In this document: positions 23,500-43,049 of the stretch, piece by piece
Layout: each line of letters begins with the position of its first letter
How positions within the stretch are numbered: the stretch's first letter is position 1
Source of the DNA: Chloroflexota bacterium
GTDB lineage: Bacteria > Chloroflexota > Anaerolineae > Promineifilales > Promineifilaceae
Assembly: GCA_003696605.1 (NCBI GenBank)
Contig: RFGV01000202.1
Coordinates: forward strand, 1 to 54,410
Direction: 5' to 3'
DNA: 54,410 bases
Notes under the pieces: generated by a model
Told to the model about the DNA's origin: nothing
Databases searched by the model: none
The model's input: only the letters and a program-made list of their open reading frames with translations
Made by a program: the position numbers and the translations under genes

Positions 23500-23827
23500 A
23501 CAAGGCTTCCTGTGAAGTTTAAGTTTGTTTGCAGAATTATAACGCTAGCACAGGCTCAAAAATGACCGTAATGCAAGCATATAAAAACATTTACCCCTAA
23601 TTCACTAAATCAAGTATACGCAAAACTTTCCAAAAATAAACCAACGACCTGTAAAAACCTTGTGAACGTCATCAAAACCATATTGTCAGATCTCTCCGTG
23701 ACAACCACAAAACCCCACACTTCTTCCCCATTTAATTCTAAAAATCCCCTAATCCTTTGCCGATGCTCATTGCATGTGTTATAAATGGGACAGATTTCAC
23801 AAACTCCTTCCACTTCAGGAGGATCAC
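23500..23827. other. 328-bp divergent intergenic region between the response regulator and nuoA
   Basis: No coding frame with a start and ribosome-binding site was seen. It is A/C-rich on the + strand, contains no ACGGCCGT copy, and carries the nuo promoter near its right end (23757-23785). No strong hairpin was seen. Confidence 0.6.
23757..23785 (+). promoter_or_regulatory. Promoter of the nuo cluster
   Basis: TTGCCG (23757-23762), exact 17-base spacer, TATAAA (23780-23785). The transcript would begin near 23792, about 36 bases before the nuoA GTG. Confidence 0.65.
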
Positions 23828-24184
23828 GTGTTAACAGACTGGCAATTCATTGCTCTTTTTGTTGTGCTTTCGCCAATATTTCCGGCGATGCCTGTAATTA
23901 TTAACCACCTGTTGGGTCCTAAAAAACCCAACCCAATCAAACAGCAAACCTACGAATGCGGTATTGAAACTGTAGGTGATAGCTGGGTACAGTTCAAAGT
24001 ACAGTATTACATTTACGCTCTCGTATTTGTCATTTTTGACATTGAAGCTGTATTCCTCTTCCCTATTGCTGCAGCTTACGATCAGCTGGGGCTGTTTGCC
24101 GTAGGTGCAGCAGTGTTGTTCATCTTCCTGTTGGGAGATGGCTTGGCCTACGCTTGGGGTCGAGGCGTCCTCGAGTGGGTGTAA
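23828..24184 (+). CDS. nuoA: NADH-quinone oxidoreductase subunit A
   Basis: 118 residues from the GTG at 23828, which has AGGAGG 5 bases upstream. Three membrane helices flank the conserved loop with YECGIETVGDSWVQF; its Cys is the family's conserved loop cysteine near the quinone pocket. Helix 2 has FDIEAVFLFP. In most bacteria nuoA is followed by nuoB, C, D; here a terminator-like hairpin and then nuoH follow, so the peripheral-arm genes are elsewhere. Confidence 0.95.
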   Translation: MLTDWQFIALFVVLSPIFPAMPVIINHLLGPKKPNPIKQQTYECGIETVGDSWVQFKVQYYIYALVFVIFDIEAVFLFPIAAAYDQLGLFAVGAAVLFIFLLGDGLAYAWGRGVLEWV

Positions 24185-24223
24185 CCAGATAAATCAGAAG
24201 ATTAACAAGGCAGGAATGCTATC

Positions 24224-24254
24224 AAATGGCTGGGCAAACCGCTCCGCCATTTTT
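24224..24254 (+). terminator. Terminator-like hairpin between nuoA and nuoH
   Basis: AAATGGC (24224-24230) pairs with GCCATTT (24246-24252), extended inward by GGGC/GCTC with one mismatch and one wobble, loop AAACC. Five T residues (24250-24254) overlap the right arm. In the middle of an operon it could act as an attenuator or mark an old operon end. Confidence 0.5.
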
Positions 24255-24292
24255 ACATGCCTGTCAATTTGTGCTGTTTGCGGAGAGTGAGC

Positions 24293-25549
24293 ATGAGTTT
24301 TAATCTTGTGGAGTTTCTCAAAAGCCTGGTAAGCCTGACAGTATTTGATTATGTACGTCAGGTTTGGGGTGATACGCCTGGGGTTGAAATCGTACTGGAC
24401 ATTATCGGTGTTTTGGTCGTTTCAACCTTTTGTTTGCTGATTGTTATTTTTCTCATCTGGCTGGAGCGGAAAGTAATAGCCCGTATTCAGGATCGTATTG
24501 GTCCGAACAGAGTGGGTGGCCGCTATGGCTTGTTGCAGACTGTGGCAGACGTGCTGAAGTTGCTTACAAAAGAGGATATTACACCCGCTGGCGCGGACAA
24601 GGTGGCTTATAACCTGGCTCCGCTTACCATTGTGATGGCCGCTTTGTTGATGTGGGCGGTTATGCCTTTTGCCCCCGGCGTTATAGGCGTTGACCTGAAC
24701 GTTGGGGTTTTTTATGTCATGGCGGTTAGTTCTGTGTCTGTTGTCAGTTTGCTGCTGGCCGGTTGGGGATCTAACAATAAATATGCGTTGTTAGGAGCGT
24801 TTCGTTCGGTAGCTCAACTGGTGAGTTACGAAGTGCCCATGATTTTGTCTTTGCTCATTCCTATTTTGCTGGCACGCTCCATGTCTACTGAGCAGATTAT
24901 TGCCGCGCAGGATGTGCCGTTTATTATCATGGCTCCTCTTTCTGCGTTGATTTTCTTTATTTCGGCGCTGGCTGAAACAGGGCGTACGCCTTTTGACTTG
25001 CTGGAAGCGGAGTCGGAAATTGTGGCCGGATTTCATGTTGAGTATGGTGGTATGAAGTTTGGTATGTTTTTCCTGGCCGAGTTTGTTAGTACGCTCTTTA
25101 TGTCTGGTTTGTTTGCTACGTTGTATTTGGGTGGGTATCGTTTCTTTGGTCTGGAGAATTTGGTGATTGGCGACATGGAAATCGGCCGTTTGTTGGGGCT
25201 AATTGTTTTCTTTGTCAAGATGTTCACCATTTACTTTATCTTTATTTGGATTCGCGGTACATTGCCCCGTGTGCGTGTAGACCAGTTGCTAAACTTTAAT
25301 TGGAAGTTCCTGGTGCCGGTAACACTGGTGTTGATTTTGGTGGTGGCGATTTTGGATAAATTGGCAGGTGGTGCTGGTATCTGGACACGGACGGTTGTGC
25401 AGTTGGTCGGAAACGGGGTGGTTGGTCTGGTGGCATTGGAGTTGATGCGTCGGGCGGCTCGTCGTTACCGTCGGGAGCAGGAAGCGATGGTAATGACTCG
25501 TCGCGAGTTGGCTTCAGCCCCGGCCGAAGTAACTGTATCCTCACATTAG
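24293..25549 (+). CDS. nuoH: NADH-quinone oxidoreductase subunit H
   Basis: 418 residues from the ATG at 24293, 7 bases after GGAGAG; an in-frame ATG at 24257 has no such site. This is the membrane subunit that joins the quinone cavity to the pumping modules. Signatures are WLERKVIARIQDRIGPNRVGG near the N-terminus and the charged loop ETGRTPFDLLEAESEIVAGFHVEY. The C-terminus is longer than in E. coli (325 residues), ending in an extra helix and a basic, then Glu/Ala-rich tail. Confidence 0.97.
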   Translation: MSFNLVEFLKSLVSLTVFDYVRQVWGDTPGVEIVLDIIGVLVVSTFCLLIVIFLIWLERKVIARIQDRIGPNRVGGRYGLLQTVADVLKLLTKEDITPAGADKVAYNLAPLTIVMAALLMWAVMPFAPGVIGVDLNVGVFYVMAVSSVSVVSLLLAGWGSNNKYALLGAFRSVAQLVSYEVPMILSLLIPILLARSMSTEQIIAAQDVPFIIMAPLSALIFFISALAETGRTPFDLLEAESEIVAGFHVEYGGMKFGMFFLAEFVSTLFMSGLFATLYLGGYRFFGLENLVIGDMEIGRLLGLIVFFVKMFTIYFIFIWIRGTLPRVRVDQLLNFNWKFLVPVTLVLILVVAILDKLAGGAGIWTRTVVQLVGNGVVGLVALELMRRAARRYRREQEAMVMTRRELASAPAEVTVSSH

Positions 25550-25565
25550 TCAGGAGTAGTTCAAC

Positions 25566-26111
25566 GTGATGGTTGAGCAAATTGTTTTTATTCTGGTGAG
25601 TTTGTTTACGTTGATAACGGCCGTTGTGGTTGTAACTAATCGGAACCTGTTCCACGCGGCCTTGGCTCTGATGGCTTCCTTTTTGGGAGTAGCCGGTTTG
25701 TACGTTTTACTGGATGCAGGCTTTTTGGCTGCTGCTCAGTTATTGGTGTATATCGGAGCCATTTCCATTTTAATTATCTTTGCCATCATGCTCACGCGGC
25801 GGTTGATGCATGCACTGGAGTCTCCATTTAATTCACAGTGGGGGCTGGGAGCATTTACGGCCGTTGTCGCGTTTGCTGTAATGGCTGGTGTCATTGCCCA
25901 ATTCTGGCCAGTTACACCGGATTCCGTAACGCCACTTGCTTCACGGCCAGAAGTAAGTGCCAGCATTTTGCGTGGAAGCGTAGCTGAACTTGGCCGGGCA
26001 TTGGTTAGCTCCGATGCCTATGTCATCCCCTTTGAAATAGCTTCTGTTCTTTTGCTGGCCGCGTTGATTGGTGCAATAGTCGTGGCTTGGCCCAAAGCGG
26101 AGGATGAATAA
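25566..26111 (+). CDS. nuoJ: NADH-quinone oxidoreductase subunit J
   Basis: 181 residues with five hydrophobic helices; GLYVLLDAGFLAAAQLLVYIGAISILIIF is the typical helix 3 region containing the pi-bulge. The start is a GTG at 25566, 9 bases after AGGAG, or the ATG directly behind it at 25569. The last residues overlap the nuoK ribosome-binding site, so J and K are translationally linked. Confidence 0.95.
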   Translation: MMVEQIVFILVSLFTLITAVVVVTNRNLFHAALALMASFLGVAGLYVLLDAGFLAAAQLLVYIGAISILIIFAIMLTRRLMHALESPFNSQWGLGAFTAVVAFAVMAGVIAQFWPVTPDSVTPLASRPEVSASILRGSVAELGRALVSSDAYVIPFEIASVLLLAALIGAIVVAWPKAEDE

Positions 26112-26113
26112 TC

Positions 26114-26422
26114 ATGGTTCCATTGTCCTGGTATTTGCTGGTCGCAGCTTTACTCTTTTGCATTGGCCTTTATGGTGTGATGGTGCGGCGCAACGCAGTA
26201 GCCATTTTGATGGCCGTTGAATTAATGCTCAATGCCGTAAATATTAACCTGGTTGCCTTCTGGCGGTATCTTTCCCCAGAAAGACCAGTAGGTTTGGCTT
26301 GGGCAATCTTTGTCCTTACCGTTGCTGCTGCTGAAGCTGCGGTTGGCTTGGCATTGTTGATTTCTGTTTACCGTAATCGTGGTTCTGTGGTCGCTGAGGA
26401 ACTTGACCTGTTGAAGAACTGA
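26114..26422 (+). CDS. nuoK: NADH-quinone oxidoreductase subunit K
   Basis: 102 residues, three membrane helices. The two buried Glu residues that carry protons in this subunit are visible in LMAVELMLNAVNINLVAF and AAAEAAVGLALLI. It starts 2 bases after the nuoJ stop, with GGAGG inside the end of nuoJ. There is only one nuoK in the cluster although nuoM is duplicated. Confidence 0.96.
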   Translation: MVPLSWYLLVAALLFCIGLYGVMVRRNAVAILMAVELMLNAVNINLVAFWRYLSPERPVGLAWAIFVLTVAAAEAAVGLALLISVYRNRGSVVAEELDLLKN

Positions 26423-26480
26423 GACTGGAAAGCTTTTTCAGTCCGATAACAAGAATCCTTAAGTTGGCGAGATTGGCTTT

Positions 26481-28739
26481 ATGAGTGAACAAACACTTCA
26501 AACATTAACCTGGCTAATCCCTGCAGGCCCATTGTTGGCGTTTTTCCTGATTGTGCTATTTACCAAGCATAATCGAACGTTAAGTTGGGTGCTGGCTTGG
26601 GTAGCTATTATTAGTTCGTTGGTAATGGGCTGGATTGTGGCGTTTAGCCTGTTTCTAACTGACACCCATGAATTGGCTGCACATCCAGTTGCCATTGCTG
26701 ATGCAGTGGATTGGTTGCCATTTGGTGACTTTGCTAAAGGATTGTGGTTACAAATGGGTGTGGCAGTGGATCCATTAACGGCCGTTATGCTCTTCATGGT
26801 TCCTTTTGCCACAACCATGATCTTCATTTACAGCGTCGGTTACCACAACTATGGCAAACCACGGGGCGACAAACTGGGCGTACCCAACCACGGCAAAGAA
26901 GAACCCCTCTTTTCCCGTTTCTTCGCCTTCATGTGCCTCTTTGCTGGAGCAATGCTCACCCTGGTTGTTGCCGACAACTTATTGCTCCTGTTTGTTGGCT
27001 GGGAAATCATGGGGTTATGCTCTTACTCCCTGATTGGCTTCTGGTACGCTCGTGAATACGACAACCCCAAAGCAACCCCACCCCGCAAAGCCGCTATCAA
27101 AGCCTTCATGACCACACGCGTCGCCGATGTTGTCATGTTGCTCGGTATCGTTTTCTTCTACCGGGTTTTCGGCACTCTAAACTTTAGTGAAGCTCTCTCA
27201 GCCCACGGGTTAGAAGAAGCAGCTGGCGCTGTTGGGGCAGGTGCGTTGGGTATCATGGCACTCCTTCTCTTTACCGGTACAGTCGGTAAATCCGCACAAT
27301 GGCCCCTACATGTTTGGTTGCCCGATGCAATGGAAGGCCCCACACCTGTCAGTGCCATCATTCACGCTGCAGCAATGGTTTCTGCAGGTGTGTACATGAT
27401 TTTGCGCATCTTCCCCCTAATCGCCGTTGGTATCGAAGGAAATCCTGCAGTTAGTCTAATCATTGGGGGTATCGGAGCTTTCACTGCCCTGATGGCAGCC
27501 ACCATTGCTATTGCTCAAAACGATGTCAAGAGAGTATTAGCTTATTCCACTATTTCCCAATTAGGTTATATGGTTGCTGCAATCGGCATCGGTGCCTACG
27601 TGGCGGCTGCCTTCCACCTGATTACCCATGCCTTCTTCAAGGCACTCCTCTTCCTGGGTTCTGGTTCCATTATCCATGGTATGGAGCATGGTGCAGAGCA
27701 CGTGCATGACCATCATACCGACCCCCAAGATATGATGAATATGGGTGGTTTGCGCCAGAAGATGCCCAAGACCTTCTGGACTTTCCTGATTGGTGGCTTT
27801 GCGCTATCTGGATTCCCCATTGTGACAGCTGGCTTCTGGTCTAAAGACGAAATTTTGGCTGATGCCTGGTTCCAGGGAAGTGCAGGTAACACATTAGCTA
27901 TGGTTATCTTCTGGATGCTGGCAATTGCAGCAGCACTAACCGCATTCTACACCATGCGCCAAATCGCGCTTACTTTCTTCGGTGAACCCCGTACACCCTT
28001 GGCCGAACACGCTCATGAAAGTGGTCGGTTAATGGTGTGGCCATTAATTGCGCTTTCAGTCTTTGCTGTAAGCGCTGGCTGGTTTGGTATTCCCGAAGAA
28101 TTCCCAATTTTGGGGCCAGCCATTAACAACAACTTTTTCCATCACTTCGTTGGGGCAACTGTTGAAGAAACCCTGCACGAATTGGAAGAATTGCACTTGA
28201 TTGGGCACGGCTTGGAAACATTGCCATTTAATCCATTCCCGCTTACTGTTTCTATTATAGTGGCCTTGGGTGGATTATTCTTGGGATGGTGGGTTTACGG
28301 CCGTAACCCCCTCAAGGCAGGTGAACCAGATCCACTTCGTGCACCACTTGGCCCACTATACGACTTTTTGGAAAACAAATGGTACTGGGATGAACTGTAT
28401 CAACTCATCTTCATCCGGCCTACCGTTTACATTTCCGAAACAATTGTGTACGAAGTCGTTGATCGCGGCATCATTGACGGGACATTACACCTCATTGCTC
28501 GCACAGTTTACACCATTGGCCATTACCTAAAACGTTTCGAAGAGGTAGTTATCAGTGGCGGTGTAGACTGGGTCAAAGATCAATTCCTGGCAATGGCTCG
28601 CGAAACTCGACAGATACAAACAGGGAAAGTGCAAGAATACATTCTGGCGTCCACTTTGGTGGTTTCCGCACTCGCTTTCCTGATTATTTTCTTCATCAAT
28701 TACGGATGGTACGATGCTATCCGTGCATTAATCCAGTAA
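26481..28739 (+). CDS. nuoL: NADH-quinone oxidoreductase subunit L
   Basis: 752 residues, the distal antiporter-like pump of complex I. Glu175 (LLLLFVGWEIMGLCSY) and Lys270 (GTVGKSAQWPLHVWLPDAMEG) are the key charged residues of the proton channel. It is about 140 residues longer than E. coli NuoL (613), with a loop near 125-142 and a long C-terminal part that should include the lateral helix. The extra length may matter because the cluster has a second NuoM, which the lateral helix would need to span. Confidence 0.97.
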   Translation: MSEQTLQTLTWLIPAGPLLAFFLIVLFTKHNRTLSWVLAWVAIISSLVMGWIVAFSLFLTDTHELAAHPVAIADAVDWLPFGDFAKGLWLQMGVAVDPLTAVMLFMVPFATTMIFIYSVGYHNYGKPRGDKLGVPNHGKEEPLFSRFFAFMCLFAGAMLTLVVADNLLLLFVGWEIMGLCSYSLIGFWYAREYDNPKATPPRKAAIKAFMTTRVADVVMLLGIVFFYRVFGTLNFSEALSAHGLEEAAGAVGAGALGIMALLLFTGTVGKSAQWPLHVWLPDAMEGPTPVSAIIHAAAMVSAGVYMILRIFPLIAVGIEGNPAVSLIIGGIGAFTALMAATIAIAQNDVKRVLAYSTISQLGYMVAAIGIGAYVAAAFHLITHAFFKALLFLGSGSIIHGMEHGAEHVHDHHTDPQDMMNMGGLRQKMPKTFWTFLIGGFALSGFPIVTAGFWSKDEILADAWFQGSAGNTLAMVIFWMLAIAAALTAFYTMRQIALTFFGEPRTPLAEHAHESGRLMVWPLIALSVFAVSAGWFGIPEEFPILGPAINNNFFHHFVGATVEETLHELEELHLIGHGLETLPFNPFPLTVSIIVALGGLFLGWWVYGRNPLKAGEPDPLRAPLGPLYDFLENKWYWDELYQLIFIRPTVYISETIVYEVVDRGIIDGTLHLIARTVYTIGHYLKRFEEVVISGGVDWVKDQFLAMARETRQIQTGKVQEYILASTLVVSALAFLIIFFINYGWYDAIRALIQ

Positions 28740-28755
28740 GAGTAGGTAGGAGAAA

Positions 28756-30300
28756 ATGGACTTTATTCAAAACAATCTCCTCAACCTGATAGTTTTCTTC
28801 CCGACACTGGCCGCATTGATCATCTTTTTGCTGCCAGAAGACGAAAAGACACTTATTCGACGTCTTAGCTTTGTCTTTAGTCTTGTGCCGTTGGCATTGA
28901 CACTGGTTATGTGGTTCAACTTTGATCGTACTCAAGCTGGATTCCAGTTTGAATATGTACGGTCTTGGTTCCCGGCCATTGGTGCCAGTTATCATATGGG
29001 GATAGATGGAATCAGTCTTTCCATGTTCTTGTTAACTACCATCCTCACCCCACTGGCAATCCTGGCTTCTTTTACCATAGAAGATAAGGTTCGAATGTAC
29101 ATGTCGCTGTTTCTTATTATGGAAACAGCCATGTTAGGCCTGTTTGGGGCGTTGGACCTGATAATCTTCTTTATTTTCTGGGAGTTTGGCCTTGTCCCCA
29201 TGTATTTCCTGATTAAGTTGTGGGGTGGTAAAGACCGGGATTACGCTTCTTTTAAGTTCTTTGTTTACACAATGGCTGGTAGTCTCGGGTTACTGCTTTC
29301 CATTCAGGTTATGGGGTTGGCTACTGGTACGTTTGATATTGTAGAACTCCTGGATAAGTGGGTTAATCTGCCCAAGGGTGGTGTTTTACCAGGCACAGGA
29401 TTGGCAGTTGACACAGTTAAGGCAGTGGCATTTTGGGCGTATGTGTTGGCGTTTGCTATTAAGGTTCCTGTTTGGCCATTCCATACCTGGTTGCCAGATG
29501 CCCATACCCAGGCACCAACTGCTGGTTCAATGATTTTGGCTGGTGTTTTGCTTAAATTGGGTGCTTATGGGTTTATTCGTCTGGTTATTCCATTTTTCCC
29601 AGAACAAGCCCATACATTTGCTTATGTGCTGGCCACGCTTGGTATGCTAAGCATTATTCTCGGTGGTTTTGCGGCATTTGGTCAGTGGGATTTCAAGCGA
29701 TTGGTTGCTTATTCATCTATTAATCATATGGGTTTTGTTGTACTGGGTATTGCAGTGATGGCCTATGTATATGGTTTGCCTGGTAATAACGAAGCACTTT
29801 CGCAGGATGCCATTATGGCGACAAATGGTGCGGTTTTCCAGATGTTTAATCATGGGCTTTCTGCGGCCGGGATGTTCTTCCTGGTGGGTGTGATTTATGA
29901 ACGAACCCATACGCGTGACCTGAAGCGGTTTGGTGGTATCTGGACTGTTTTGCCAATGTTTGGTGCGATTCTTATTTTTACCAGCATGGCGTCTTTGGGC
30001 TTGCCTGGTCTGAATGGGTTTGTGAGCGAATTTATGATTGTTCGTGGTAGCTGGGGTGTTTTCACCTTGCAGGTTGCCTTGTCTATGCTGGGATTGTTGA
30101 TGACTGGCGCTTATATCCTGAAGGGGATTGGCCAGACGTTGCATGGTCCATTGAATCCCGAATGGGCTGGGTTGAAAGATATGACCTGGCGTGAACATTT
30201 GGTGATCTGGCCACTGATGGCTCTGATGTTGAGCCTGGGGGTTTGGCCGCAGTGGTTGGTTGCGTTTATTAACGATACTGTGACTCGATTGTTTGGTTAA
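28756..30300 (+). CDS. nuoM: NADH-quinone oxidoreductase subunit M, canonical copy
   Basis: 514 residues, 14 predicted helices. All pump residues are present: Glu143 (FIFWEFGLVPMYFLI), Lys236 (AIKVPVWPFHTWLPDAH) and Lys267 (VLLKLGAYG). AGGAG lies 4-5 bases before the ATG. It sits 16 bases after nuoL and is followed by a divergent second NuoM. Confidence 0.96.
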   Translation: MDFIQNNLLNLIVFFPTLAALIIFLLPEDEKTLIRRLSFVFSLVPLALTLVMWFNFDRTQAGFQFEYVRSWFPAIGASYHMGIDGISLSMFLLTTILTPLAILASFTIEDKVRMYMSLFLIMETAMLGLFGALDLIIFFIFWEFGLVPMYFLIKLWGGKDRDYASFKFFVYTMAGSLGLLLSIQVMGLATGTFDIVELLDKWVNLPKGGVLPGTGLAVDTVKAVAFWAYVLAFAIKVPVWPFHTWLPDAHTQAPTAGSMILAGVLLKLGAYGFIRLVIPFFPEQAHTFAYVLATLGMLSIILGGFAAFGQWDFKRLVAYSSINHMGFVVLGIAVMAYVYGLPGNNEALSQDAIMATNGAVFQMFNHGLSAAGMFFLVGVIYERTHTRDLKRFGGIWTVLPMFGAILIFTSMASLGLPGLNGFVSEFMIVRGSWGVFTLQVALSMLGLLMTGAYILKGIGQTLHGPLNPEWAGLKDMTWREHLVIWPLMALMLSLGVWPQWLVAFINDTVTRLFG

Positions 30301-30338
30301 TTTTGGATTACGATACCTTTTAAGCTGGAAAGGGGCCT

Positions 30339-31970
30339 ATGGAGTTTCCATTTTTATCAGTCATAACGTTGTCTCCGATTGTGGCGGCCATCATTATTTT
30401 GATGTTGCCAGAAGAGCGCAAAGAAAATGCGCGTATGCTTGGCTTGGCTGCCATGATCCTTGGTTTGGTGTTGTCCGTATATATATATGTGGCGTACAAC
30501 CAAAATTTGCCTGCCCCAGATGCAAGATGGGCAGAGACGTTGATGTTTGTTGAGGAGCATTCCTGGATCCCAGGCGTTAACATTAATTATATTTTGGGTG
30601 TTGATGGCATGAGCGTGACGCTGGTGCTGTTGACAGCAATTGTTGGTCTGGGTGGAGTGCTTATTTCTTGGGGCATTGAGGATCGGCCACGGGAGTTTTA
30701 TGCGTTTTTTATGTTGCTTGTGGCTGGTGTTCATGGTGTGTTTGTAGCAGTAGACGGCTTTTTGCTGTTCTTCTTCTATGAATTGGCCGTGTTGCCCATG
30801 TACGTCATGATTGTTATTTGGGGGTGGGAGAAGACGCGAGAGTATGCGGCAATGAAGCTGACTTTGTATTTGTTGATTGGTAGCTTTGTGTCGTTTATCG
30901 CGTTTTTGGTTTTGTATTTCCAGATGCCAACAATTGGGCTGGAACGGACGTTTGATTTGCGTGTGTGGGCAGAGGCGGATTTCCCGCGCACGATGCAGAT
31001 TGTCTGGTTTATGCCGTTGTTTTTGGGATTTGCTGTGTTGGCTGGTTTGTGGCCGTTCCATAATTGGTCTCCGGATGGTCACGTGGCAGCACCAACGGCC
31101 GTTTCCATGATTCACGCAGGCGTATTGATGAAACTTGGTGCGTACGCATCCATGCGCGTTGGTATCCAAATTTTGCCGGAAGGCACTATTTACTGGATGC
31201 CATTCATCATCCTACTCACGCTTATTAATGTGATTTACGGTTCTCTGATTGCCATGCGCCAGCGCGATATGAAATATCTCATCGGCTACTCCAGTGTTAG
31301 CCATATGGGACTTGTTTCTATGGGCTTCGCGGCGCTCAATTTGCGTGGTTTTACTGGTGCTGGCATCCAGATGGTTAGCCATGGCATCATGACCGCCCTT
31401 TTCTTTTCTGTTGTTGGTATGATTTATGACCGGACACACACACGCGATATGGATGAATTAAGTGGCATGGCCAAGGCACTTCCATGGACTGTTGTGGCTT
31501 TCATTATAGGCGGTCTTGTTTCCATGGGAATGCCGGGTCTTTCTGGTTTCATTGCTGAATTCCCTATTTTTCTTGGGGTATGGGATGGTGGTGACCTTAA
31601 TCTAACCAATACAATCTTTGGTTTGAATCCTGCCAATTATTACCCCATAATCGCCATTCTTTCTGCCTTGGGGATCATCGTTACGGCAGCCTACATCATG
31701 CGGGCTATCAATGCAGTATTTTTTGGCGAATACAAGGGAGAGCTTTGGCACGATATGCGGCCATTACTGGCTATTGATAAATTCGCACTGGTTGGCTTTT
31801 GTGTTTGCCTGATCATCATTGGTGTGTTCCCATCGGTCATTGCTCCAGTTGTGGAAGCAGGTGTGACACCAGTGGTTAATCGTCTTATTGAAGCACAACA
31901 AGCTGCTACAATTTTGGATACTGTTCAGACTGTAGCTACAAATCTATTGGCTTTATTTGGAGGTGCATAA
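30339..31970 (+). CDS. Second NuoM-like subunit, lacking one channel lysine
   Basis: 543 residues, clearly of the NuoM family (FYELAVLPMYVMIVIWGWEKTREY; MIHAGVLMKLGAYA). Glu148 and Lys265 are kept, but the residue equivalent to Lys236 of the neighbouring NuoM is Leu234: the first copy reads AIKVPVWPFH, this one AVLAGLWPFH. That helix-7 Lys is essential for pumping in characterised NuoM. The copy may be an extra module with altered coupling, as discussed for so-called 2M complex I, or a structural spacer. AAGGGG lies just before the ATG. Its stop directly abuts the nuoN GTG. Confidence 0.9.
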   Translation: MEFPFLSVITLSPIVAAIIILMLPEERKENARMLGLAAMILGLVLSVYIYVAYNQNLPAPDARWAETLMFVEEHSWIPGVNINYILGVDGMSVTLVLLTAIVGLGGVLISWGIEDRPREFYAFFMLLVAGVHGVFVAVDGFLLFFFYELAVLPMYVMIVIWGWEKTREYAAMKLTLYLLIGSFVSFIAFLVLYFQMPTIGLERTFDLRVWAEADFPRTMQIVWFMPLFLGFAVLAGLWPFHNWSPDGHVAAPTAVSMIHAGVLMKLGAYASMRVGIQILPEGTIYWMPFIILLTLINVIYGSLIAMRQRDMKYLIGYSSVSHMGLVSMGFAALNLRGFTGAGIQMVSHGIMTALFFSVVGMIYDRTHTRDMDELSGMAKALPWTVVAFIIGGLVSMGMPGLSGFIAEFPIFLGVWDGGDLNLTNTIFGLNPANYYPIIAILSALGIIVTAAYIMRAINAVFFGEYKGELWHDMRPLLAIDKFALVGFCVCLIIIGVFPSVIAPVVEAGVTPVVNRLIEAQQAATILDTVQTVATNLLALFGGA

Positions 31971-33476
31971 GTGAATTCAGTAATCACCTCTTCCTGGGTT
32001 TTGGCCCTGGCTCCTGAAATCAGCCTGTTGGTTTTGCTGATAATCGTGTTGATCTATGACCGCCTCATCAAACCCGAAGAGCGTCGGCAAATTGGCCTTG
32101 TTTCTGCCTGGGGAGCAACGGTAATTTTGTTGCTTACGCTAGGGTTATGGTTGTTTGGTAATGAGCCCAATGTCCAGGCATCTTTGCGTGACAGCCTTAT
32201 TTGGGGCGGTATGTTGCGGCATGATCTGATAACCCTCGTGTTTCGAGTTATGTTTCTGGTGGCCTTAATTGTCACCAGTCTTATTTCTATGGATGTGGAG
32301 AAATTGCAGCGAGGGGAATATTTTGCCCTGCTTATTACAGCAACGGTTGGTTTTAGTCTCATGGCGTCTGCTTCCGACCTGATTATGCTGTATATTGGCC
32401 TTGAAACAGCCAGTATTTCTTCCTATGTGTTGGCAGGGTTTCTTACCAAAGATATGCGTTCCCCTGAAGCGGGTATGAAGTATTTTGTGTATGGTGCGTT
32501 TGCAACAGGGGTGATGTTGTACGGACTGAGCCTTTTGTATGGCATTACTACGCAAACGAACTTGTACGTTATTGGTTCTATCTTAACAGGGGCACAAGCA
32601 ATTCCAGTAGAGGCAAATGCAGTTTTGCTTTTGTCAGCCGCTATGATTGTGGTGGGATTTGGTTTCAAGATAGCGGCCGTTCCCTTCCATTTTTGGACAC
32701 CTGATGTTTACGAAGGTTCTCCAACCCCCTTTACTGCTTTTGTGTCCACAGCCTCTAAAGCAGCCGGGTTTGCTGTATTTATTCGTGTGTTTACAGCAGG
32801 TGCATTAGGAACGCCAAATCCCTCTCGTGAGTGGTGGGCAATGCTGGTCGCCATGTGTATTGTCACCATGACGTTAGGTAATTTGGCTGCCATTTATCAA
32901 AAAAATATCAAGCGTTTGTTGGCTTACTCTAGTATTGCCCAGGCCGGTTATGCCATGATTGGGTTAGTGACCTTTACCCCTGATGGCTCCGGAGCTGCTA
33001 TGTTCTACCTTTTGATGTATGTATTTACGAACATTGCTGCCTTTGGTGTCATTATCTTGGTCAGCAACATCACTGGCTCAGAAGATCTGGATGATTTTCG
33101 TGGGCTAAGTCGCCGGTCTCCTTATCTGGCTATGATAATGTTGGTTGCCTTGCTCTCCTTGGGCGGCATCCCGCCAACGGCAGGATTCCTCGGTAAATTT
33201 TACTTGTTCCGAGCAGCCGTCAACGCTGGATTATGGGGTTTGGCTCTAATCGGTATTTTGAATGCGTTTGTGGCGTTGTATTACTATCTTTCGATCGTTA
33301 AATATATGTATCTGTATCGCTCGGAAGAAGAACATATTTCCATTCCTGTCTCACGGGCAGCTCAAGTTGGTCTGGCATTTTCAACTTTCTTCGTGTTACT
33401 TTTAGGTGTTTATTCTGGCCCAGCTTTTGAATGGACTTTAAATGCTGCTAATGCTTTCTATGCGTTAATCGGGTAA
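31971..33476 (+). CDS. nuoN: NADH-quinone oxidoreductase subunit N
   Basis: 501 residues. GTG start at 31971 with no gap after the second nuoM stop, so translation is coupled. Pump residues are visible: Glu in LYIGLETASISSYVLAGF, Lys in GFGFKIAAVPFHFWTPDVYEG, and Lys in SKAAGFAVFIR. It ends the complex I part; the atp promoter follows 28 bases later. Confidence 0.96.
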   Translation: MNSVITSSWVLALAPEISLLVLLIIVLIYDRLIKPEERRQIGLVSAWGATVILLLTLGLWLFGNEPNVQASLRDSLIWGGMLRHDLITLVFRVMFLVALIVTSLISMDVEKLQRGEYFALLITATVGFSLMASASDLIMLYIGLETASISSYVLAGFLTKDMRSPEAGMKYFVYGAFATGVMLYGLSLLYGITTQTNLYVIGSILTGAQAIPVEANAVLLLSAAMIVVGFGFKIAAVPFHFWTPDVYEGSPTPFTAFVSTASKAAGFAVFIRVFTAGALGTPNPSREWWAMLVAMCIVTMTLGNLAAIYQKNIKRLLAYSSIAQAGYAMIGLVTFTPDGSGAAMFYLLMYVFTNIAAFGVIILVSNITGSEDLDDFRGLSRRSPYLAMIMLVALLSLGGIPPTAGFLGKFYLFRAAVNAGLWGLALIGILNAFVALYYYLSIVKYMYLYRSEEEHISIPVSRAAQVGLAFSTFFVLLLGVYSGPAFEWTLNAANAFYALIG

Positions 33477-33561: not shown

Positions 33562-33834
33562 GTGGACCGGAACAATTCTCAAGTAAATCAAACAGCTCTA
33601 TTAGCGAGTGTTGTTGGGCAGGTTGGCTGCTTAATTGTCTTCTTGGTAGGGTTGGCATTAGGTGCCGGCATGCTATTAGACAACGTGTTGGGTACAAATG
33701 CTATTTTTACGGTGGTTTTTATCGTAGGTAGTGTACCTGTAGCTTTGTATCTGACAGTACGGCTGAGTATGACAGCCATTGCCCGTGTACAAAATATGAA
33801 CTCCAAAGAATCGGAGGAAGAAGCGAAAGAATGA
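33562..33834 (+). CDS. AtpI/AtpZ-like small membrane protein
   Basis: 90 residues from a GTG at 33562, with two membrane helices (about 14-40 and 47-70) and an acidic tail (ESEEEAKE). Proteins of this type often precede atpB and are thought to help c-ring assembly or supply magnesium. Identification rests mainly on size, topology and position. Its last 4 bases overlap the atpB start (ATGA). Confidence 0.75.
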   Translation: MDRNNSQVNQTALLASVVGQVGCLIVFLVGLALGAGMLLDNVLGTNAIFTVVFIVGSVPVALYLTVRLSMTAIARVQNMNSKESEEEAKE

Positions 33835-34907
33835 AAAAACGGTATATAGTTTACGCTTGTGTAATACTTTTGGTGGCGTTAAGTTTTGTTTCTCCACCAG
33901 TTCTCCCGGTTATTCAGCTGCCGGGTGAAGTGGTTGTTCCTTGGCCAGAAGGCAGTGTGTTGAATAACTGGTTTGGCCATGGATTGACCAATACTTTTAT
34001 TGCCACCATTTTGACATTTTTGATTTTGGTAGGGTTAACTTTTAGCTTGCGGGCACGGTCCCGAACGGCCGAAGAGGTACCAACCGGATTCTATAATTTC
34101 TTTGAGATGATTATTGAATTCGCGTATGGGTACGTGGAAAATGCGGCTGGTAAATGGGCAAGAAACTTTTTCCCATTCTTTATGACGTTTATTCTCTGGA
34201 TTGTTGTTGCAAACTGGATGGAATTGGTACCAGGGGTAGACGCTATTGGTAAATGGGAAGACTTGTCTCATTTACGGGCAGAACAAGCCGTGATGGCTGC
34301 TGAGAAGCAAGCAGAAGCTGAAGGCCGTCATTTAAGCGAAGAGGAAATTCATCATATCGAAGAAGAGGCTTTGCACGAGGCGGATGAAGCTAATTTGGGC
34401 GATCTGAAACGAGGATTTTTCCTCATTAAGGCTTCTACAGATGAAAATGGCGAAAAGCCAGATGATGCTGACTGGACAATTGTGCCATTTGTGCGTGCCG
34501 CAGCCACAGATCTGAATTTCCCACTGGCTTTGGCGATTATTTCGGTTCTTATGACTCAATATTATGGGATGAAGGCACAAGGACTGAAATATTGGAAGAA
34601 GTTCTTTGTGTGGGATGGTGATGCTATTGCCAAGAACCCACTGGCAATAATGGATCCGGCTGTGGGTATTTTGGAGTTTATCAGCGAGATTTTCAAGATT
34701 GTCTCGTTTGCATTCCGACTTTTAGGTAACATTTTTGCGGGGCAGGTTTTGCTATTTGTTATTGCCGCATTGGTCCCGGTGGCAAACTTGCTGTTCTGGC
34801 ATTTGGAATTTGCAGTAGGTATTTTGCAAGCGGCTGTGTTTGCCTTGCTGACGTTGACCTTTATGACTGGTGCGACAGAATCGCATCATGGTGAAGAACA
34901 TCACTAA
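33831..34907 (+). CDS. atpB: ATP synthase subunit a, with a charged insertion
   Basis: 358 residues; E. coli subunit a has 271. The essential Arg is Arg296 (SFAFRLLGNIFAGQ). ATDLNFPLALAI is the usual start of the following helix. Between ELVPG (about 131-135) and that motif (about 225) lies a segment of about 80 residues rich in Glu, Ala and His (EAEGRHLSEEEIHHIEEEAL), predicted helical and soluble. A His/Glu-rich tail (ESHHGEEHH) follows the last helix. It overlaps the atpI-like gene by 4 bases. The insertion may be a lineage feature. Confidence 0.95.
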   Translation: MKKRYIVYACVILLVALSFVSPPVLPVIQLPGEVVVPWPEGSVLNNWFGHGLTNTFIATILTFLILVGLTFSLRARSRTAEEVPTGFYNFFEMIIEFAYGYVENAAGKWARNFFPFFMTFILWIVVANWMELVPGVDAIGKWEDLSHLRAEQAVMAAEKQAEAEGRHLSEEEIHHIEEEALHEADEANLGDLKRGFFLIKASTDENGEKPDDADWTIVPFVRAAATDLNFPLALAIISVLMTQYYGMKAQGLKYWKKFFVWDGDAIAKNPLAIMDPAVGILEFISEIFKIVSFAFRLLGNIFAGQVLLFVIAALVPVANLLFWHLEFAVGILQAAVFALLTLTFMTGATESHHGEEHH

Positions 34908-34984
34908 GTCTGAGTTTGGATTAGATTTTAGTAGAACAAAAAAAGAAAAAGTTAAAAAACAAACATTCGGAGGATTTAGAAATT

Positions 34985-35233
34985 ATGGATGTACAAGCTG
35001 CTGAAGCAATTGCAAATGGCCTGAAACTGCTTGGTGCTGGTTTGGCCATGACGGGTGCTATTGGTGCTGGTGCTGGTATTGGTATCGTGGTTGGTGGTGC
35101 AGTACAGGGTATTGCACGTAATCCTGATGCGGCCGGTACAATTACTGGTAACATGATTTTGGGTGTGGCTTTGGCCGAAGCGGTTGCTATTTACGCGCTG
35201 GTTATTGCCTTGATTTTGATCTTTGTGGCGTAA
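34985..35233 (+). CDS. atpE: ATP synthase subunit c
   Basis: 82 residues, two helices. The ion-binding carboxylate is Glu65 (ALAEAVAIYALVIAL); the polar loop is ARNPDAAG. Helix 1 has the Gly-rich GAIGAGAGIGIVVGG. The Ser/Thr that follows the Glu in sodium-type rings is Ala here and helix 1 lacks the Gln ligand, so proton coupling is likely. GGAGG lies 11 bases upstream. The 77-base leader after atpB is A-rich, as often seen for strongly translated atpE. Confidence 0.96.
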   Translation: MDVQAAEAIANGLKLLGAGLAMTGAIGAGAGIGIVVGGAVQGIARNPDAAGTITGNMILGVALAEAVAIYALVIALILIFVA

Positions 35234-35279
35234 GTAGTTTTTGTCAGGTCGAAGAGAATATTAGAGAGGGTCTTTTGTT

Positions 35280-35984
35280 ATGGAAGCATTAGGTATAAAT
35301 GTTGGTTACCTGGTAATGCAGATCCTGCTCTTTATCATCTTGTTGTTGGTGATGCGCAATTATGCGTATGAGCCGATTTTGAAGGTGATGGAAGAGCGGA
35401 AAGCTCGCATCGCTAAGGGGCTTGAGGATGCACGGCAGGCATCTATTGCTCGTGATAATGCAGATGCGGAGGCAAAGAAGATTTTGGATGCGGCTCGTGC
35501 AGAAGCGGCTAAGATTCGTTCAGATGCCACTGTACAGGCTGAGCAGTCTGCAAATGCGATTTTGGCTAAGGCGAATGAGGAAGCAAAGGCTATTGTAGAC
35601 GCGGCTCGTGAAGAAGCTGAGGCTGAGCGGAATCGTATTTTGGCTGATTTGCGGGGCGAAGTGGCTGCGATTGCTATTGCAGCAGCGAATAAGCTGGTTG
35701 GTGAGTCTCTGGATGAAAGTCGTCAGCGGGCACTGATTGGGGAGTTTTTTGCTAAGGTGCCGGCGAATGTGGCGAATTTGTCTGGTAAGAAGGCAGAAGT
35801 TACAAGTGCATTGCCTTTGACGGAAGAAGAGCAGAAGCGTGTGAAAGAGACTCTGAAGGTTGAGTCGGTTACGTTTAAGGTTGATCCTAAAATTTTGGGT
35901 GGTTTGGTAGTGCGTGTGGATGACCAGGTTGTGGATAATAGTGTGGCTGGTCAGATGAACGCATTGCGGGAGACCTTGAAATAA
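35280..35984 (+). CDS. atpF: ATP synthase subunit b fused to a delta-like C-terminal segment
   Basis: 234 residues; usual b is about 160. Residues 1-165 are typical b: one N-terminal helix (GYLVMQILLFIILLLVM) and a long Ala/Glu/Lys coiled coil. Residues about 170-234 resemble the C-terminal part of the delta subunit (VTSALPLTEEEQKRVKETL ... KILGGLVVRVDDQVVDNSV). The N-terminal six-helix bundle of delta, which binds F1 alpha, is missing. No separate atpH is in the window. A strong terminator follows, so atpA, G, D and C lie elsewhere. Confidence 0.9.
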   Translation: MEALGINVGYLVMQILLFIILLLVMRNYAYEPILKVMEERKARIAKGLEDARQASIARDNADAEAKKILDAARAEAAKIRSDATVQAEQSANAILAKANEEAKAIVDAAREEAEAERNRILADLRGEVAAIAIAAANKLVGESLDESRQRALIGEFFAKVPANVANLSGKKAEVTSALPLTEEEQKRVKETLKVESVTFKVDPKILGGLVVRVDDQVVDNSVAGQMNALRETLK

Positions 35985-39332: not shown

Positions 39333-42300
39333 TTATTTGGTTTGAGAAGAACGGCCGTTTCCATTCAAACCCGCCAACTGCGAATACTTCTGCCACTGCG
39401 CCTCCACATCCGCTTGCGCCAACGCCATCAACTTTTGCGCTCGCTCCGGGTGACTCTGCAACAACATCCGATAACGCCCTTCACGATACGCATACTTCTC
39501 CAGCGGAATACGCGGCGGTTTAGAATCCAACTGGAACGGATTCTTCCCCTCCGCCACCAAATCCGGGTTATACCGATAAAGCGGCCAATACCCCGAATCC
39601 ACCGCCAACTTTTGCTGTTCCAGGCCAAATTTCAAGTCATACCCATGCGCAATACAATGACTGTAAGCCAAAATCAACGATGGGCCATCATACGCATCTG
39701 CCTCCAAAAACGCCTTAATCGTCTGAGAATCATTCGCACCAAAAGCTACCCGTGCCACATAAATATTCCCATAACTAATAGCTAACAACCCCAAATCCTT
39801 CTTAGGCATAGGCTTGCCAGCAGCAGCAAACTTGGCCACAGCCCCTCGCGGCGTTGCTTTCGACATCTGGCCACCTGTATTGGAATACACCTCAGTATCC
39901 AGAACCAGCACATTCACATTTCGCCCCGACGCCAACACATGGTCCAGACCGCCATAACCAATGTCATATGCCCACCCATCACCACCAACAATCCACACAC
40001 TCTTCCGTACAAACACATCTGCCATACTGAGCAAATTCGTTAATTGTCCGGAGACTTCCGCCTCTTTTTCTTCTGCCAACAACTCACGCAGTCGCTGTTG
40101 CAATTCGGCCACACGACCTCGTTGTGCCTTAATACCAGCCTCGTCACTTTGATCTGCATACAAAATCGCATCGACCAACGCCGGACCTATTTTCTCCCGC
40201 AATTTGCGAATCAGTCCCGTTGCTGCTTCCAGCCGTTGGTCCAAAGCTACCCGCATTCCAAAACCAAACTCTGCGTTATCTTCAAACAATGAGTTAGACC
40301 AGGCCGGCCCACGACCTTCTGCATTTGCACTCCATGGTGTGGTGGGTAAGTTACCACCATAAATGGAAGAACAGCCGGTGGCATTGGCCACAATGCTACG
40401 GTCACCAAAAAGCTGAGTGAGCAACTTCAGATAAGGTGTTTCGCCACAACCAGCACAAGCACCGGAGAACTCAAAGAGTGGTTCCAGCAGTTGGTTATAT
40501 TTCACCTGATTTAACGGAATCGTTGTGCGATCAATTTCTGGCAATTCCAGGAAGAAATTCCAATTTTCCCGTTCCTGTTCCCGTAATGGGGCTTGCGGCG
40601 CCATGTTGATTGCTTTGAATTTTGGCTGTTTTTTGTTTTTAACCGGGCAAACTTCCACACACAAAGTACAGCCGGTGCAGTCTTCTGGTGCTACTTGTAA
40701 GGTGTAAGCCATTCCCTTGTATTCTTTGTAGCGAGCAGGTGCCCACTTAAATGTTTCTGGTGCATTTTCCAGCAGGGCGGTGTCATACACTTTCATGCGA
40801 ATGACTGAGTGTGGGCATACGAAGACGCATTTGCCACACTGGATACAGATGTCCGGATCCCAGACGGGGATTTCAGTGGCAATGTTGCGTTTTTCCCATT
40901 TGGTTGTACCGGAGGGGTATGTGCCATCTACAGGCAAGGCACTCACTGGTAGTTCGTCGCCAAGCCCTTCGATCATGCGGGCGGTTACCGATTTGACAAA
41001 TTCTGGTGCGTAGTCGGGGATGACTGGTGGGCGCTCAAACTGGCTGGTAACTTTGCCGGGTACATTCACTTCGTGTAGATGGGATAGGGCTGTGTCAACG
41101 GCCGTAAAGTTTTGCTGAACGACTGCTTCGCCACGCTTGCCATAGGTTTTTTGAATGGCATTTTTGATGGCCTGGATGGCTTCCTCGGTGGGCAGGACGC
41201 CGCTTAGCGCAAAGAAGCAGGTTTGCATGACGGTGTTGATACGGCGTCCCAGGCCAGTTTCGCGAGCAACGCGGTATCCATCAACCACAAAGAACCGAAT
41301 TTTTTTGTCGATGATTGTCTGTTGCAGGCTGCGTGGTAGATGGTCCCATACTTCATCTGGGCCGTAGGGGCTGTTGAGTAAGAAGGTGGCACCAGGGGCG
41401 GCCAGTTTTAATATGTCGTATCGTTCCAGGAAGTTGAACTGATGACAGGCGATGAAGTTGGCGGATTGGATGAGGTAGGGGGCGTGGATTGGTTGTTTGC
41501 CAAAGCGAAGATGGGAGACGGTAACGGCGCCGGCTTTTTTGGAGTCGTAAACGAAATAGCCTTGGGCGTGGTTTTCGGTTTCTTCGCCGATGATTTTGAT
41601 GGAGTTTTTGTTGGCGCCGACTGTGCCGTCGGAACCGAGGCCGTAGAAGACGGCGCGGACGGTGTTTTCGGGTTCAATGTTGAAGGTTTTGTCCCAATCG
41701 AGGCTGGTGTGGGTGACGTCGTCAATGATGCCGATGGTGAAGTGTTTTTTGGGTTTGGGTTTGGTGAGTTCGTCGAAGATGGCTTTGACCATGCCGGGGT
41801 TGAATTCTTTGGATGAGAGACCATAACGGCCGCCGATGATGCGGGGCATGGTGGTGAAGGGGGCGTTGCCATCGGCGAGGGCTTCGGTAACGGCCGATAC
41901 CACGTCCAGATATAAGGGTTCACCGGTAGCGCCGGGTTCTTTGGTACGGTCTAACACGGCGATGGCTTTGGTTGTGGCCGGCAGAGCACTGACAAAGGCT
42001 TGAACGTCGAAAGGCCGATATAGCCTGACCTTAATAACGCCAACTTTTTCACCCTGGTTGGCCAGGAAAACGGCCGTTTCTGCCGCTGTTTCTGCACCTG
42101 ACCCCATCAGTACAATCACACGTTCCGCATCCGGTGCCCCCACATAATCAAACAAGTGGTACTGACGCCCCGTCAGTCCGGCAAACTTATCCATCACCTT
42201 TTGCACAATACCCGGACAAGCCAAATAATACGGATTCACACTCTCGCGTGCCTGGAAAAACACATCCGGATTTTGGGCAGTACCTCGAATAAACGGATGT

Positions 42301-42929
42301 TCCGGATTCAGCCCCCGTTCCCGATGTGCGCGCACCAGATCATCATTAATCATCGTGCGGATCACATCATCCGGAATAACAGCCACCTTATTGATCTCAT
42401 GTGAAGTCCGAAAGCCATCAAACACATGCAAAAACGGCACACGTGCTTCCAAAGTTGAGGCCGTAGAAATGAGAGCAAAATCCATCACTTCTTGTACTGA
42501 GCTGGCCATAAGAATGGCAAAACCAGTATTACGGGCAGCCATTACATCAGAGTGATCACCAAAAATAGAAAGTGCCTGTGCTGCCACCGAGCGAGCCGCA
42601 ATATGAAAAACGGTTGAAGTCAACTCCCCTGCTATCTTATACATATTGGGGATCATCAACAGCAAACCTTGGGAAGCGGTAAATGTAGTTGTAAGCGCAC
42701 CGGCCTGAAGTGCACCATGTACCGCGCCAGCAGCCCCTCCTTCCGCCTGCATTTCTACCACTTGGGGAACCTCCCCCCAAATGTTCGTACGTCCTTCTGC
42801 TGACCATTGGTCGGCCAGTTCTCCCATTGGCGAAGAAGGGGTGATAGGATAGATGGCAATAACCTGATTTACTTTGTGGGCAATACGGGCAGCTGCTTCA
42901 TTCCCGTCAATCGTAACATATTGGTTCAT
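39333..42929 (-). CDS. nifJ: Pyruvate:ferredoxin (flavodoxin) oxidoreductase
   Basis: 1198 residues, the full single-chain enzyme. It converts pyruvate and CoA to acetyl-CoA and CO2 and reduces ferredoxin. The start is the ATG at 42927-42929 with GGAG 7 bases upstream. Domains in order: pyrimidine-binding VIAIYPITPSSPMGE, transketolase-C-like region, gamma domain, two 4Fe-4S clusters (CIQCGKCVFVCPHS and CTGCTLCVEVCPVK), a third cluster region starting CAGCGETPYL, and the TPP site GDGWAYDIGYGGLDH with SNTGGQMSKATP. An intact enzyme implies anaerobic or microaerobic pyruvate oxidation. A CRP/FNR-like dyad lies upstream at 43050-43065. Confidence 0.97.
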   Translation of the reverse strand: MNQYVTIDGNEAAARIAHKVNQVIAIYPITPSSPMGELADQWSAEGRTNIWGEVPQVVEMQAEGGAAGAVHGALQAGALTTTFTASQGLLLMIPNMYKIAGELTSTVFHIAARSVAAQALSIFGDHSDVMAARNTGFAILMASSVQEVMDFALISTASTLEARVPFLHVFDGFRTSHEINKVAVIPDDVIRTMINDDLVRAHRERGLNPEHPFIRGTAQNPDVFFQARESVNPYYLACPGIVQKVMDKFAGLTGRQYHLFDYVGAPDAERVIVLMGSGAETAAETAVFLANQGEKVGVIKVRLYRPFDVQAFVSALPATTKAIAVLDRTKEPGATGEPLYLDVVSAVTEALADGNAPFTTMPRIIGGRYGLSSKEFNPGMVKAIFDELTKPKPKKHFTIGIIDDVTHTSLDWDKTFNIEPENTVRAVFYGLGSDGTVGANKNSIKIIGEETENHAQGYFVYDSKKAGAVTVSHLRFGKQPIHAPYLIQSANFIACHQFNFLERYDILKLAAPGATFLLNSPYGPDEVWDHLPRSLQQTIIDKKIRFFVVDGYRVARETGLGRRINTVMQTCFFALSGVLPTEEAIQAIKNAIQKTYGKRGEAVVQQNFTAVDTALSHLHEVNVPGKVTSQFERPPVIPDYAPEFVKSVTARMIEGLGDELPVSALPVDGTYPSGTTKWEKRNIATEIPVWDPDICIQCGKCVFVCPHSVIRMKVYDTALLENAPETFKWAPARYKEYKGMAYTLQVAPEDCTGCTLCVEVCPVKNKKQPKFKAINMAPQAPLREQERENWNFFLELPEIDRTTIPLNQVKYNQLLEPLFEFSGACAGCGETPYLKLLTQLFGDRSIVANATGCSSIYGGNLPTTPWSANAEGRGPAWSNSLFEDNAEFGFGMRVALDQRLEAATGLIRKLREKIGPALVDAILYADQSDEAGIKAQRGRVAELQQRLRELLAEEKEAEVSGQLTNLLSMADVFVRKSVWIVGGDGWAYDIGYGGLDHVLASGRNVNVLVLDTEVYSNTGGQMSKATPRGAVAKFAAAGKPMPKKDLGLLAISYGNIYVARVAFGANDSQTIKAFLEADAYDGPSLILAYSHCIAHGYDLKFGLEQQKLAVDSGYWPLYRYNPDLVAEGKNPFQLDSKPPRIPLEKYAYREGRYRMLLQSHPERAQKLMALAQADVEAQWQKYSQLAGLNGNGRSSQTK

Positions 42930-43049
42930 ATCCAATCTCCTTCTTTACTAAATCCCCCCTGTAATTGGCAAGCAAATATTTCTGTGAGTCTGTCTAGCTA
43001 TTGTAGAGGTGGCTTGTTGAGCGGCATAGTGACAGATTACATATTTGCC

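What the first reader, a model, noticed from the sequence alone, without database searches (positions are those of the whole stretch)
30339..31970. Second NuoM has lost the helix-7 channel lysine
The canonical NuoM here reads AIKVPVWPFH with Lys236; the second copy reads AVLAGLWPFH with Leu234 at that place, while Glu148 and Lys265 stay. That Lys is central to proton transfer in characterised NuoM. So the extra module may not pump in the normal way, which matters for proposals that two-NuoM complexes move more protons.
Basis: partly seen in the sequence, partly recalled or inferred. Interest (0 to 1): 0.62.

Follow-up and report, generated by a model that had tools for sequence, protein, structure and literature searches.

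The report
Lysine-less NuoM lineage in complex I
The second NuoM proton-channel subunit of this bacterium's enlarged respiratory complex I lacks a lysine thought essential for pumping, as it does in all 107 genomes checked from two phyla, so the usual assumption that the extra subunit pumps one more proton in the ordinary way needs testing.

Summary
It is not a local oddity. In 89 of 89 two-NuoM clusters with both copies in view (53 Chloroflexota, 36 Nitrospirota) NuoM2 has Leu, Ile or Thr there, and NuoM1 has Lys. The tree puts all Lys-less NuoMs in one clade (SH-aLRT 100, one change).

The clade also supplies the only NuoM of 17 Chloroflexota L-M-N clusters, six seen as complete 11-subunit operons (ABCDHIJKLMN, no EFG, no long-helix insertion). 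So the Lys-less form is an old NuoM type, not a decayed spare.

No substitute Lys was found in helix 7. The change always comes with Leu244 to Ser/Ala/Val, the N-side gate position, and usually with a His259 gained in helix 8 at the site of NuoL's 'histidine switch'. The central Lys265-His322-Glu407 path is mostly kept.

Most likely it still carries protons but is gated by His rather than by a Glu-Lys ion pair (inferred). A non-pumping spacer or relay is the main rival. E. coli HycC is a known Lys-to-Leu precedent. Chadwick 2018, the defining 2M paper, could not be read.

The parts
30339..31970 (+). nuoM2: Lys-less NuoM (543 aa), E. coli NuoM numbering 234/244/259/265/322/348/407 = L/S/H/K/H/H/E
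   Evidence: AlphaFold2 model pLDDT 94.6, NuoM fold Z 54 to 8e9g_M
31038..31040 (+). codon 234 (TTG, Leu) at the helix-7 Lys position, in the unwound stretch between helices 217-232 and 240-250 of the model
31068..31070 (+). codon 244 (Ser) at the N-side hydrophobic gate position (Leu in 99% of K-type NuoM; T. thermophilus Leu214)
   Evidence: gate role PMC13220270
31113..31115 (+). codon 259 (His) in helix 8, aligned to the NuoL 'histidine switch' (E. coli His254)
   Evidence: PMC13358369
28756..30300 (+). nuoM1: canonical K-type NuoM with Lys236
26481..28739 (+). nuoL (752 aa) with the 26-residue long-helix insertion
28509..28586 (+). 26-aa insertion in the NuoL lateral helix (residues 677-702), mark of two-NuoM complexes
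31971..33476 (+). nuoN
26114..26422 (+). nuoK
25566..26111 (+). nuoJ
24257..25549 (+). nuoH
23774..24184 (+). nuoA

Best explanation
NuoM2 belongs to one old lineage of NuoM that lost the helix-7 Lys once. It is used as the only NuoM of some 11-subunit Chloroflexota complexes, and as the second NuoM of two-NuoM complexes in Chloroflexota and Nitrospirota (shown). Its fold and, in most members, its central proton path Lys265-His322-Glu407 are kept (shown). The Glu148-Lys ion pair that gates ordinary NuoM cannot form, and the N-side gate Leu244 is Ser (shown by sequence; effect inferred). My reading is that a proton still enters from the N side and reaches Lys265, His322 and Glu407, but that loading is switched by His259, placed like NuoL's His254, instead of by the Glu-Lys pair (inferred). 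The extra module would then still carry a proton in most lineages, by a NuoL-like histidine gate inside a NuoM body. In the few lineages that also lost Lys265 or His348 it probably does not.
For: Single Lys-less clade, SH-aLRT 100, one change of state on the tree, with the helix-7 and position-259 columns set to be left out. Perfect co-segregation in 274 rows, repeats of the same genome included: K234 with L/Q/M244 and L/V/M259, against L/I/T234 with S/A/V244 and H/A/L259. His259 is in 83% (weighted) of Lys-less NuoM and in none of the K-type. hhalign puts His259 on NuoL's helix-8 His with a one-residue gap before it. His254 of NuoL is proposed to be a proton switch (PMC13358369), and T. thermophilus Leu214Ala, the gate position, speeds proton conduction (PMC13220270). 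The sole-NuoM complexes keep Lys265, His322, His348 and Glu407 in all 17 genomes. NuoM2 is as conserved between G000 and G144 (75.5%) as NuoM1 (74.9%) and more than NuoN (66.5%) or NuoL (66.9%).
Against: In E. coli NuoM, mutations of Lys234 cause loss of function (PMC3046159), so a normal mechanism is unlikely without compensation. His259 is missing in eight genomes: four of one Chloroflexota family, where Glu148 is also Asp, and four two-NuoM-type genomes (L026-L029). Five two-NuoM genomes have also lost Lys265 at its place, and four of these also His348. No coordinates were available, so the distances of His259 to Glu148 and Lys265 were not measured. Genomes with the sole Lys-less NuoM also hold a canonical complex I, so they do not show that it is essential.
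Confidence: 0.5

Rival explanations
1. NuoM2 is a non-pumping spacer or lateral relay: it passes charge along the membrane arm between its neighbours but moves no proton across the membrane, so two-NuoM complexes pump no more than ordinary ones.
For: The ion pair proposed to gate pumping is gone in every member. Five two-NuoM genomes also lost Lys265, and four of them His348, yet keep the subunit. E. coli HycC, with the same Lys-to-Leu change, tolerated mutation of the corresponding Glu and Lys (PMC5061711).
Against: Lys265, His322 and Glu407 are otherwise nearly invariant. As the only NuoM of 11-subunit complexes it keeps the whole central path.
Confidence: 0.3
2. NuoM2 is a leak-prone or constantly open module that suits reverse electron flow: without the ion-pair lock and with a Ser gate it lets the proton-motive force drive quinol-to-ferredoxin reduction.
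For: Leu244 to Ser at the gate position, where a smaller residue speeds conduction (PMC13220270). Two-NuoM complexes are proposed to reduce ferredoxin (PMC6606698, PMC9040806). No nuoEFG lies with the two-NuoM genes here, and PFOR and AFOR genes are nearby.
Against: An uncoupled leak would be costly, and nothing here shows the direction of electron flow in this organism.
Confidence: 0.15
3. Artefact: sequencing error, frameshift or local pseudogene.
For: None.
Against: Uninterrupted ORF; the change is shared by 107 genomes in two phyla with a coherent set of linked residues.
Confidence: 0.01

Closest known systems
2M complex I (Chadwick et al. 2018; as described in PMC7117926, PMC9040806, PMC6606698)
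   Same: Two adjacent nuoM genes, lengthened NuoL helix, nuoBCDI apart with fused nuoCD, and in the Nitrospira form no nuoE/F in the cluster.
   Different: The passages of the accessible papers that I read treat the extra NuoM as an ordinary additional pump and do not mention the absence of its helix-7 Lys. The 2018 paper itself was not held.
HycC of E. coli formate hydrogenlyase
   Same: Leu208 at the NuoM Lys234 position with the helix-5 Glu and helix-8 Lys kept (PMC5061711, PMC9474812).
   Different: HycC is the single antiporter-like subunit of a hydrogenase and carries an ND3-like tail. It has Ser234 at the position of NuoL His254, with His222 from a neighbouring helix nearby (PMC13358369).
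Canonical NuoM/ND4
   Same: Fold (Z 54, rmsd 1.5 to 8e9g_M), helix-5 Glu, helix-8 Lys, His322, His348, helix-12 Glu.
   Different: No helix-7 Lys; Leu244 to Ser; Leu259 to His; Pro236 to Gly; further linked changes around helices 7 and 8.
NuoL/MrpA
   Same: Helix-8 His at the position of His254.
   Different: NuoL keeps the helix-7 Lys and has a distal Lys, not Glu; NuoM2 is NuoM by sequence score.

Membership tests
NuoM/ND4 family (NADH-quinone oxidoreductase subunit M) | Sequence score over the curated NuoM model TIGR01972 | tested here: met
   450.4 bits, cut-off 263.8
NuoM/ND4 family (NADH-quinone oxidoreductase subunit M) | Antiporter-like fold with broken helices 7 and 12 | tested here: met
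   Model pLDDT 94.6 with breaks at 233-239 and 396-401; Z 54.1, rmsd 1.5 to mycobacterial NuoM
NuoM/ND4 family (NADH-quinone oxidoreductase subunit M) | Distal Glu407 and central Lys265, the NuoM-type pattern | tested here: met
Canonical ion-pair-gated NuoM | Helix-5 Glu with helix-7 Lys partner | tested here: not met
   Glu148 present, Leu234 in place of Lys; so it is not filed as a canonical NuoM
2M complex I | Two NuoM genes adjacent in one nuo cluster | tested here: met
   A-H-J-K-L-M1-M2-N, 23774-33476
2M complex I | About 26-aa insertion in the NuoL lateral helix | tested here: met
   Exactly 26 aa; filled in Nitrospirota two-NuoM NuoL, under 20% filled in single-NuoM and sister NuoL, empty in canonical NuoL
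2M complex I | Chloroflexota form: nuoB, fused nuoCD and nuoI on a separate cluster | tested here: met
   Contig C460 (L190 6440-9690): B, CD (600 aa), I
2M complex I | Translocates an additional proton | not testable with these tools
   Needs H+/e- measurement on the purified complex
HycC-type subunit | Score over the hydrogenase-4 subunit B (HycC-like) model | tested here: not met
   NF005086 at 169.8 bits, cut-off 667; best match is NuoM

The most novel reading that the evidence does not exclude
A widespread third way of gating an antiporter-like module of complex I: a NuoM-type subunit without the Glu-Lys ion pair, with an open N-side gate and a NuoL-type histidine switch, used both as the sole NuoM of 11-subunit complexes and as the added module of two-NuoM complexes. 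This would show that the ion pair is not indispensable for redox-driven pumping.
Probability: 0.4. Interest if true: 0.8.

Novelty: new variant of a known kind. Interest (0 to 1): 0.66.

Why it matters
Current models of complex I make the Glu-Lys ion pair of each antiporter-like subunit the gate of its proton step, and energy budgets for Nitrospira, Manganitrophaceae and Chloroflexota assume that the second NuoM adds an ordinary extra proton. A conserved, naturally Lys-less NuoM in both places is a ready-made test of both ideas: either the ion pair can be replaced, or the extra module does not pump and those energy budgets are too high.

Tried and rejected
Shifted Lys in helix 7 or 8: none in helix 7; Lys264 in six genomes only, in five of which Lys265 is replaced. 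NuoM2 as a decaying spare: rejected as the general case, because it is as conserved between close relatives as NuoM1 and is the sole NuoM of other complexes. Loss restricted to Chloroflexota: rejected. Independent losses in the two phyla: the tree needs one change only. An idea that NuoM2 is the resident NuoM and NuoM1 the newcomer is only partly borne out: in Nitrospirota, NuoN goes with the single-NuoM Lys-less complexes (92) and NuoL with canonical ones (99), while in Chloroflexota NuoL lies on the canonical side (97) and NuoN is unresolved. Chadwick 2018 (PMC6194058) is not held. The structure tool gave no coordinates, so side-chain distances could not be measured. A search meant for the phylum of the 'Nitrospinota' MAG returned the same Nitrospirota genomes. 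Lys-less NuoM outside these two phyla was not searched for.

Full report
Observation. The ORF at 30339-31970 on the + strand is an intact 543-aa NuoM. NuoM1 upstream (28756-30300) reads AIKVPVWPFH with Lys236; NuoM2 reads AVLAGLWPFH with Leu234, codon TTG at 31038. Against E. coli NuoM, whose sequence I checked against PDB 3rko_M, Leu234 falls on Lys234. Glu144, Lys173, Lys265, His322, His348 and Glu407 are all kept. NuoM1 and NuoM2 are 36% identical.

Setting. The cluster is nuoA-H-J-K-L-M1-M2-N. The genome carries nuoB, a fused nuoCD and nuoI on another contig, and separately a canonical cluster A-B-C-D-E-F-G-H-I-J-K-L-M-N. This matches the Chloroflexi two-NuoM form as described in PMC7117926. 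NuoL carries a 26-residue insertion in its lateral helix (28509-28586), filled in the Nitrospirota two-NuoM NuoLs and absent from single-NuoM and canonical NuoLs; a 26-residue insertion at this place is reported for related complexes (PMC9040806). No nuoEFG lies with the two-NuoM genes.

How general it is. In 71 genomes of that phylum the NuoM2-type protein was read and lacks the Lys in all. To reach Nitrospirota I used published nxrB primer sequences, recalled from memory, as a search pattern; it returned Nitrospira moscoviensis, N. defluvii and others. In 36 Nitrospirota genomes with two-NuoM clusters NuoM2 has Ile there. Both copies were seen side by side in 53 Chloroflexota and 36 Nitrospirota clusters: NuoM2 lacks the Lys in 89 of 89, NuoM1 has it in 89 of 89. 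One Nitrospirota genome (L244) has two shorter antiporter-like proteins in place of a full NuoL, as described for 'Ca. Manganitrophaceae' (PMC9040806); its NuoM2 also has Ile.

One loss, and a second use. A tree of 121 NuoM proteins puts all 54 Lys-less ones in one clade, SH-aLRT 100, with one change of state. Its nearest relatives are Lys-bearing NuoMs of other Chloroflexota clusters in which nuoD is followed directly by nuoH. Within the Lys-less clade, 17 Chloroflexota genomes have no NuoM1 beside it: the gene order is L-M-N. Six were read in full as A-B-C-D-H-I-J-K-L-M-N without E, F, G, and their NuoL lacks the 26-residue insertion. So a Lys-less NuoM is the only NuoM of complete 11-subunit operons. 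Nearly all of these genomes also carry a canonical complex with a Lys-bearing NuoM (in G245 only a contig-end fragment was seen), so this does not show that it is essential.

What changed with the Lys. Over all rows, Lys234 always goes with Leu/Gln/Met244 and Leu/Val/Met259. Leu/Ile/Thr234 always goes with Ser/Ala/Val244, and with His259 in most (83% weighted). Because there is one origin, this is one event and not a statistical test. Leu244 corresponds to T. thermophilus Leu214 by constant numbering offset (inferred); PMC13220270 identifies that as a hydrophobic gate, and L214A conducts faster. His259 aligns by profile-profile comparison with the helix-8 His of NuoL, E. coli His254, which PMC13358369 describes as a switch between the ion pair, the N-side entry and the exit path. 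In four genomes of one family His259 is Ala and Glu148 is Asp at the same time, a hint that the two touch.

What did not change. Glu148, Lys265, His322 and Glu407 are kept nearly everywhere. All 17 sole-NuoM genomes keep Lys265, His322, His348 and Glu407. Exceptions are five two-NuoM Chloroflexota genomes (L030, L033-L035, L199) in which Lys265 has become Asn or Ala with a Lys one residue earlier; four of them also lack His348. L244 has Asp at 348. The Nitrospira NuoM1 in turn keeps Lys234 but has lost His248 and His348 to Leu and two residues of helix 8. AlphaFold2 with 42 homologues gives pLDDT 94.6 with helices 7 and 12 broken as usual, and the best PDB match is mycobacterial NuoM, Z 54.1, rmsd 1.5. 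No PDB chain matches NuoM2 more closely than ordinary NuoMs such as that of Paracoccus.

Reading. Mutating Lys234 in E. coli NuoM causes loss of function (PMC3046159), so an ordinary ion-pair mechanism cannot operate here. The retained central path, the coordinated remodelling of helices 7 and 8, and service as sole NuoM argue that protons still pass, gated by His259 in place of the pair; that step is inference. The rivals are a spacer or relay that does not pump, and a leaky module suited to reverse electron flow. E. coli HycC has the same Lys-to-Leu change (PMC5061711, PMC9474812), so the substitution is not unique; what is new here, as far as the accessible literature shows, is its universality in two-NuoM complexes, its single origin, the sole-NuoM complexes and the linked His. 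Chadwick et al. 2018 could not be read, so priority is unverified.

Origin of the pieces. In Nitrospirota two-NuoM complexes NuoN groups with NuoN of the single-NuoM Lys-less complexes (92) while NuoL groups with canonical NuoL (99) and NuoM1 with canonical NuoM. That fits a hybrid in the order L-M1-M2-N, with the Lys-less NuoM next to NuoN. In Chloroflexota NuoL lies on the canonical side (97) and NuoN is unresolved. This is a suggestion only.

Noticed in passing
L134, L135, L137, L140, L214-L243, L251-L253 (Nitrospirota NuoM1): The Lys-bearing NuoM1 of Nitrospira two-NuoM complexes has lost His248 and His348 (both Leu) and two residues of helix 8, so neither of its two NuoMs has the full canonical channel set.
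   Followed up: partly
L244 7879-11120: Nitrospirota genome G442 has a cluster with two short NuoL/MrpD-like proteins beside two NuoMs; its NuoM2 lacks the Lys and has Asp at His348.
   Followed up: partly
L030, L033, L034, L035, L199 (NuoM2): In five Chloroflexota two-NuoM genomes NuoM2 also lacks Lys265 (Asn/Ala, with Lys one residue earlier) and in four of them His348: further loss only where NuoM1 is present.
   Followed up: partly
window 33562-35984: The two-NuoM cluster runs straight into ATP synthase genes: atpI-like, atpB, atpE (34985-35233, 82 aa) and atpF-like, named by eye from the translations.
   Followed up: no
window 39333-42935 (-) and 7358-9304 (-): Pyruvate:ferredoxin oxidoreductase and aldehyde:ferredoxin oxidoreductase genes lie in the same window as the EFG-less complex, which would fit a ferredoxin electron donor.
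   Followed up: no
NuoL residues 677-702 of the window against L189, L251: The 26-residue NuoL helix insertion has the same length and place in Chloroflexota and Nitrospirota, and NuoM2 is one clade in both, which sits uneasily with independent origins of the two-NuoM form.
   Followed up: partly
L051, L163, L170, L171 (L212 and L213 are repeats): In one Chloroflexota family the sole Lys-less NuoM has Asp for Glu148 and Ala for His259 together.
   Followed up: no
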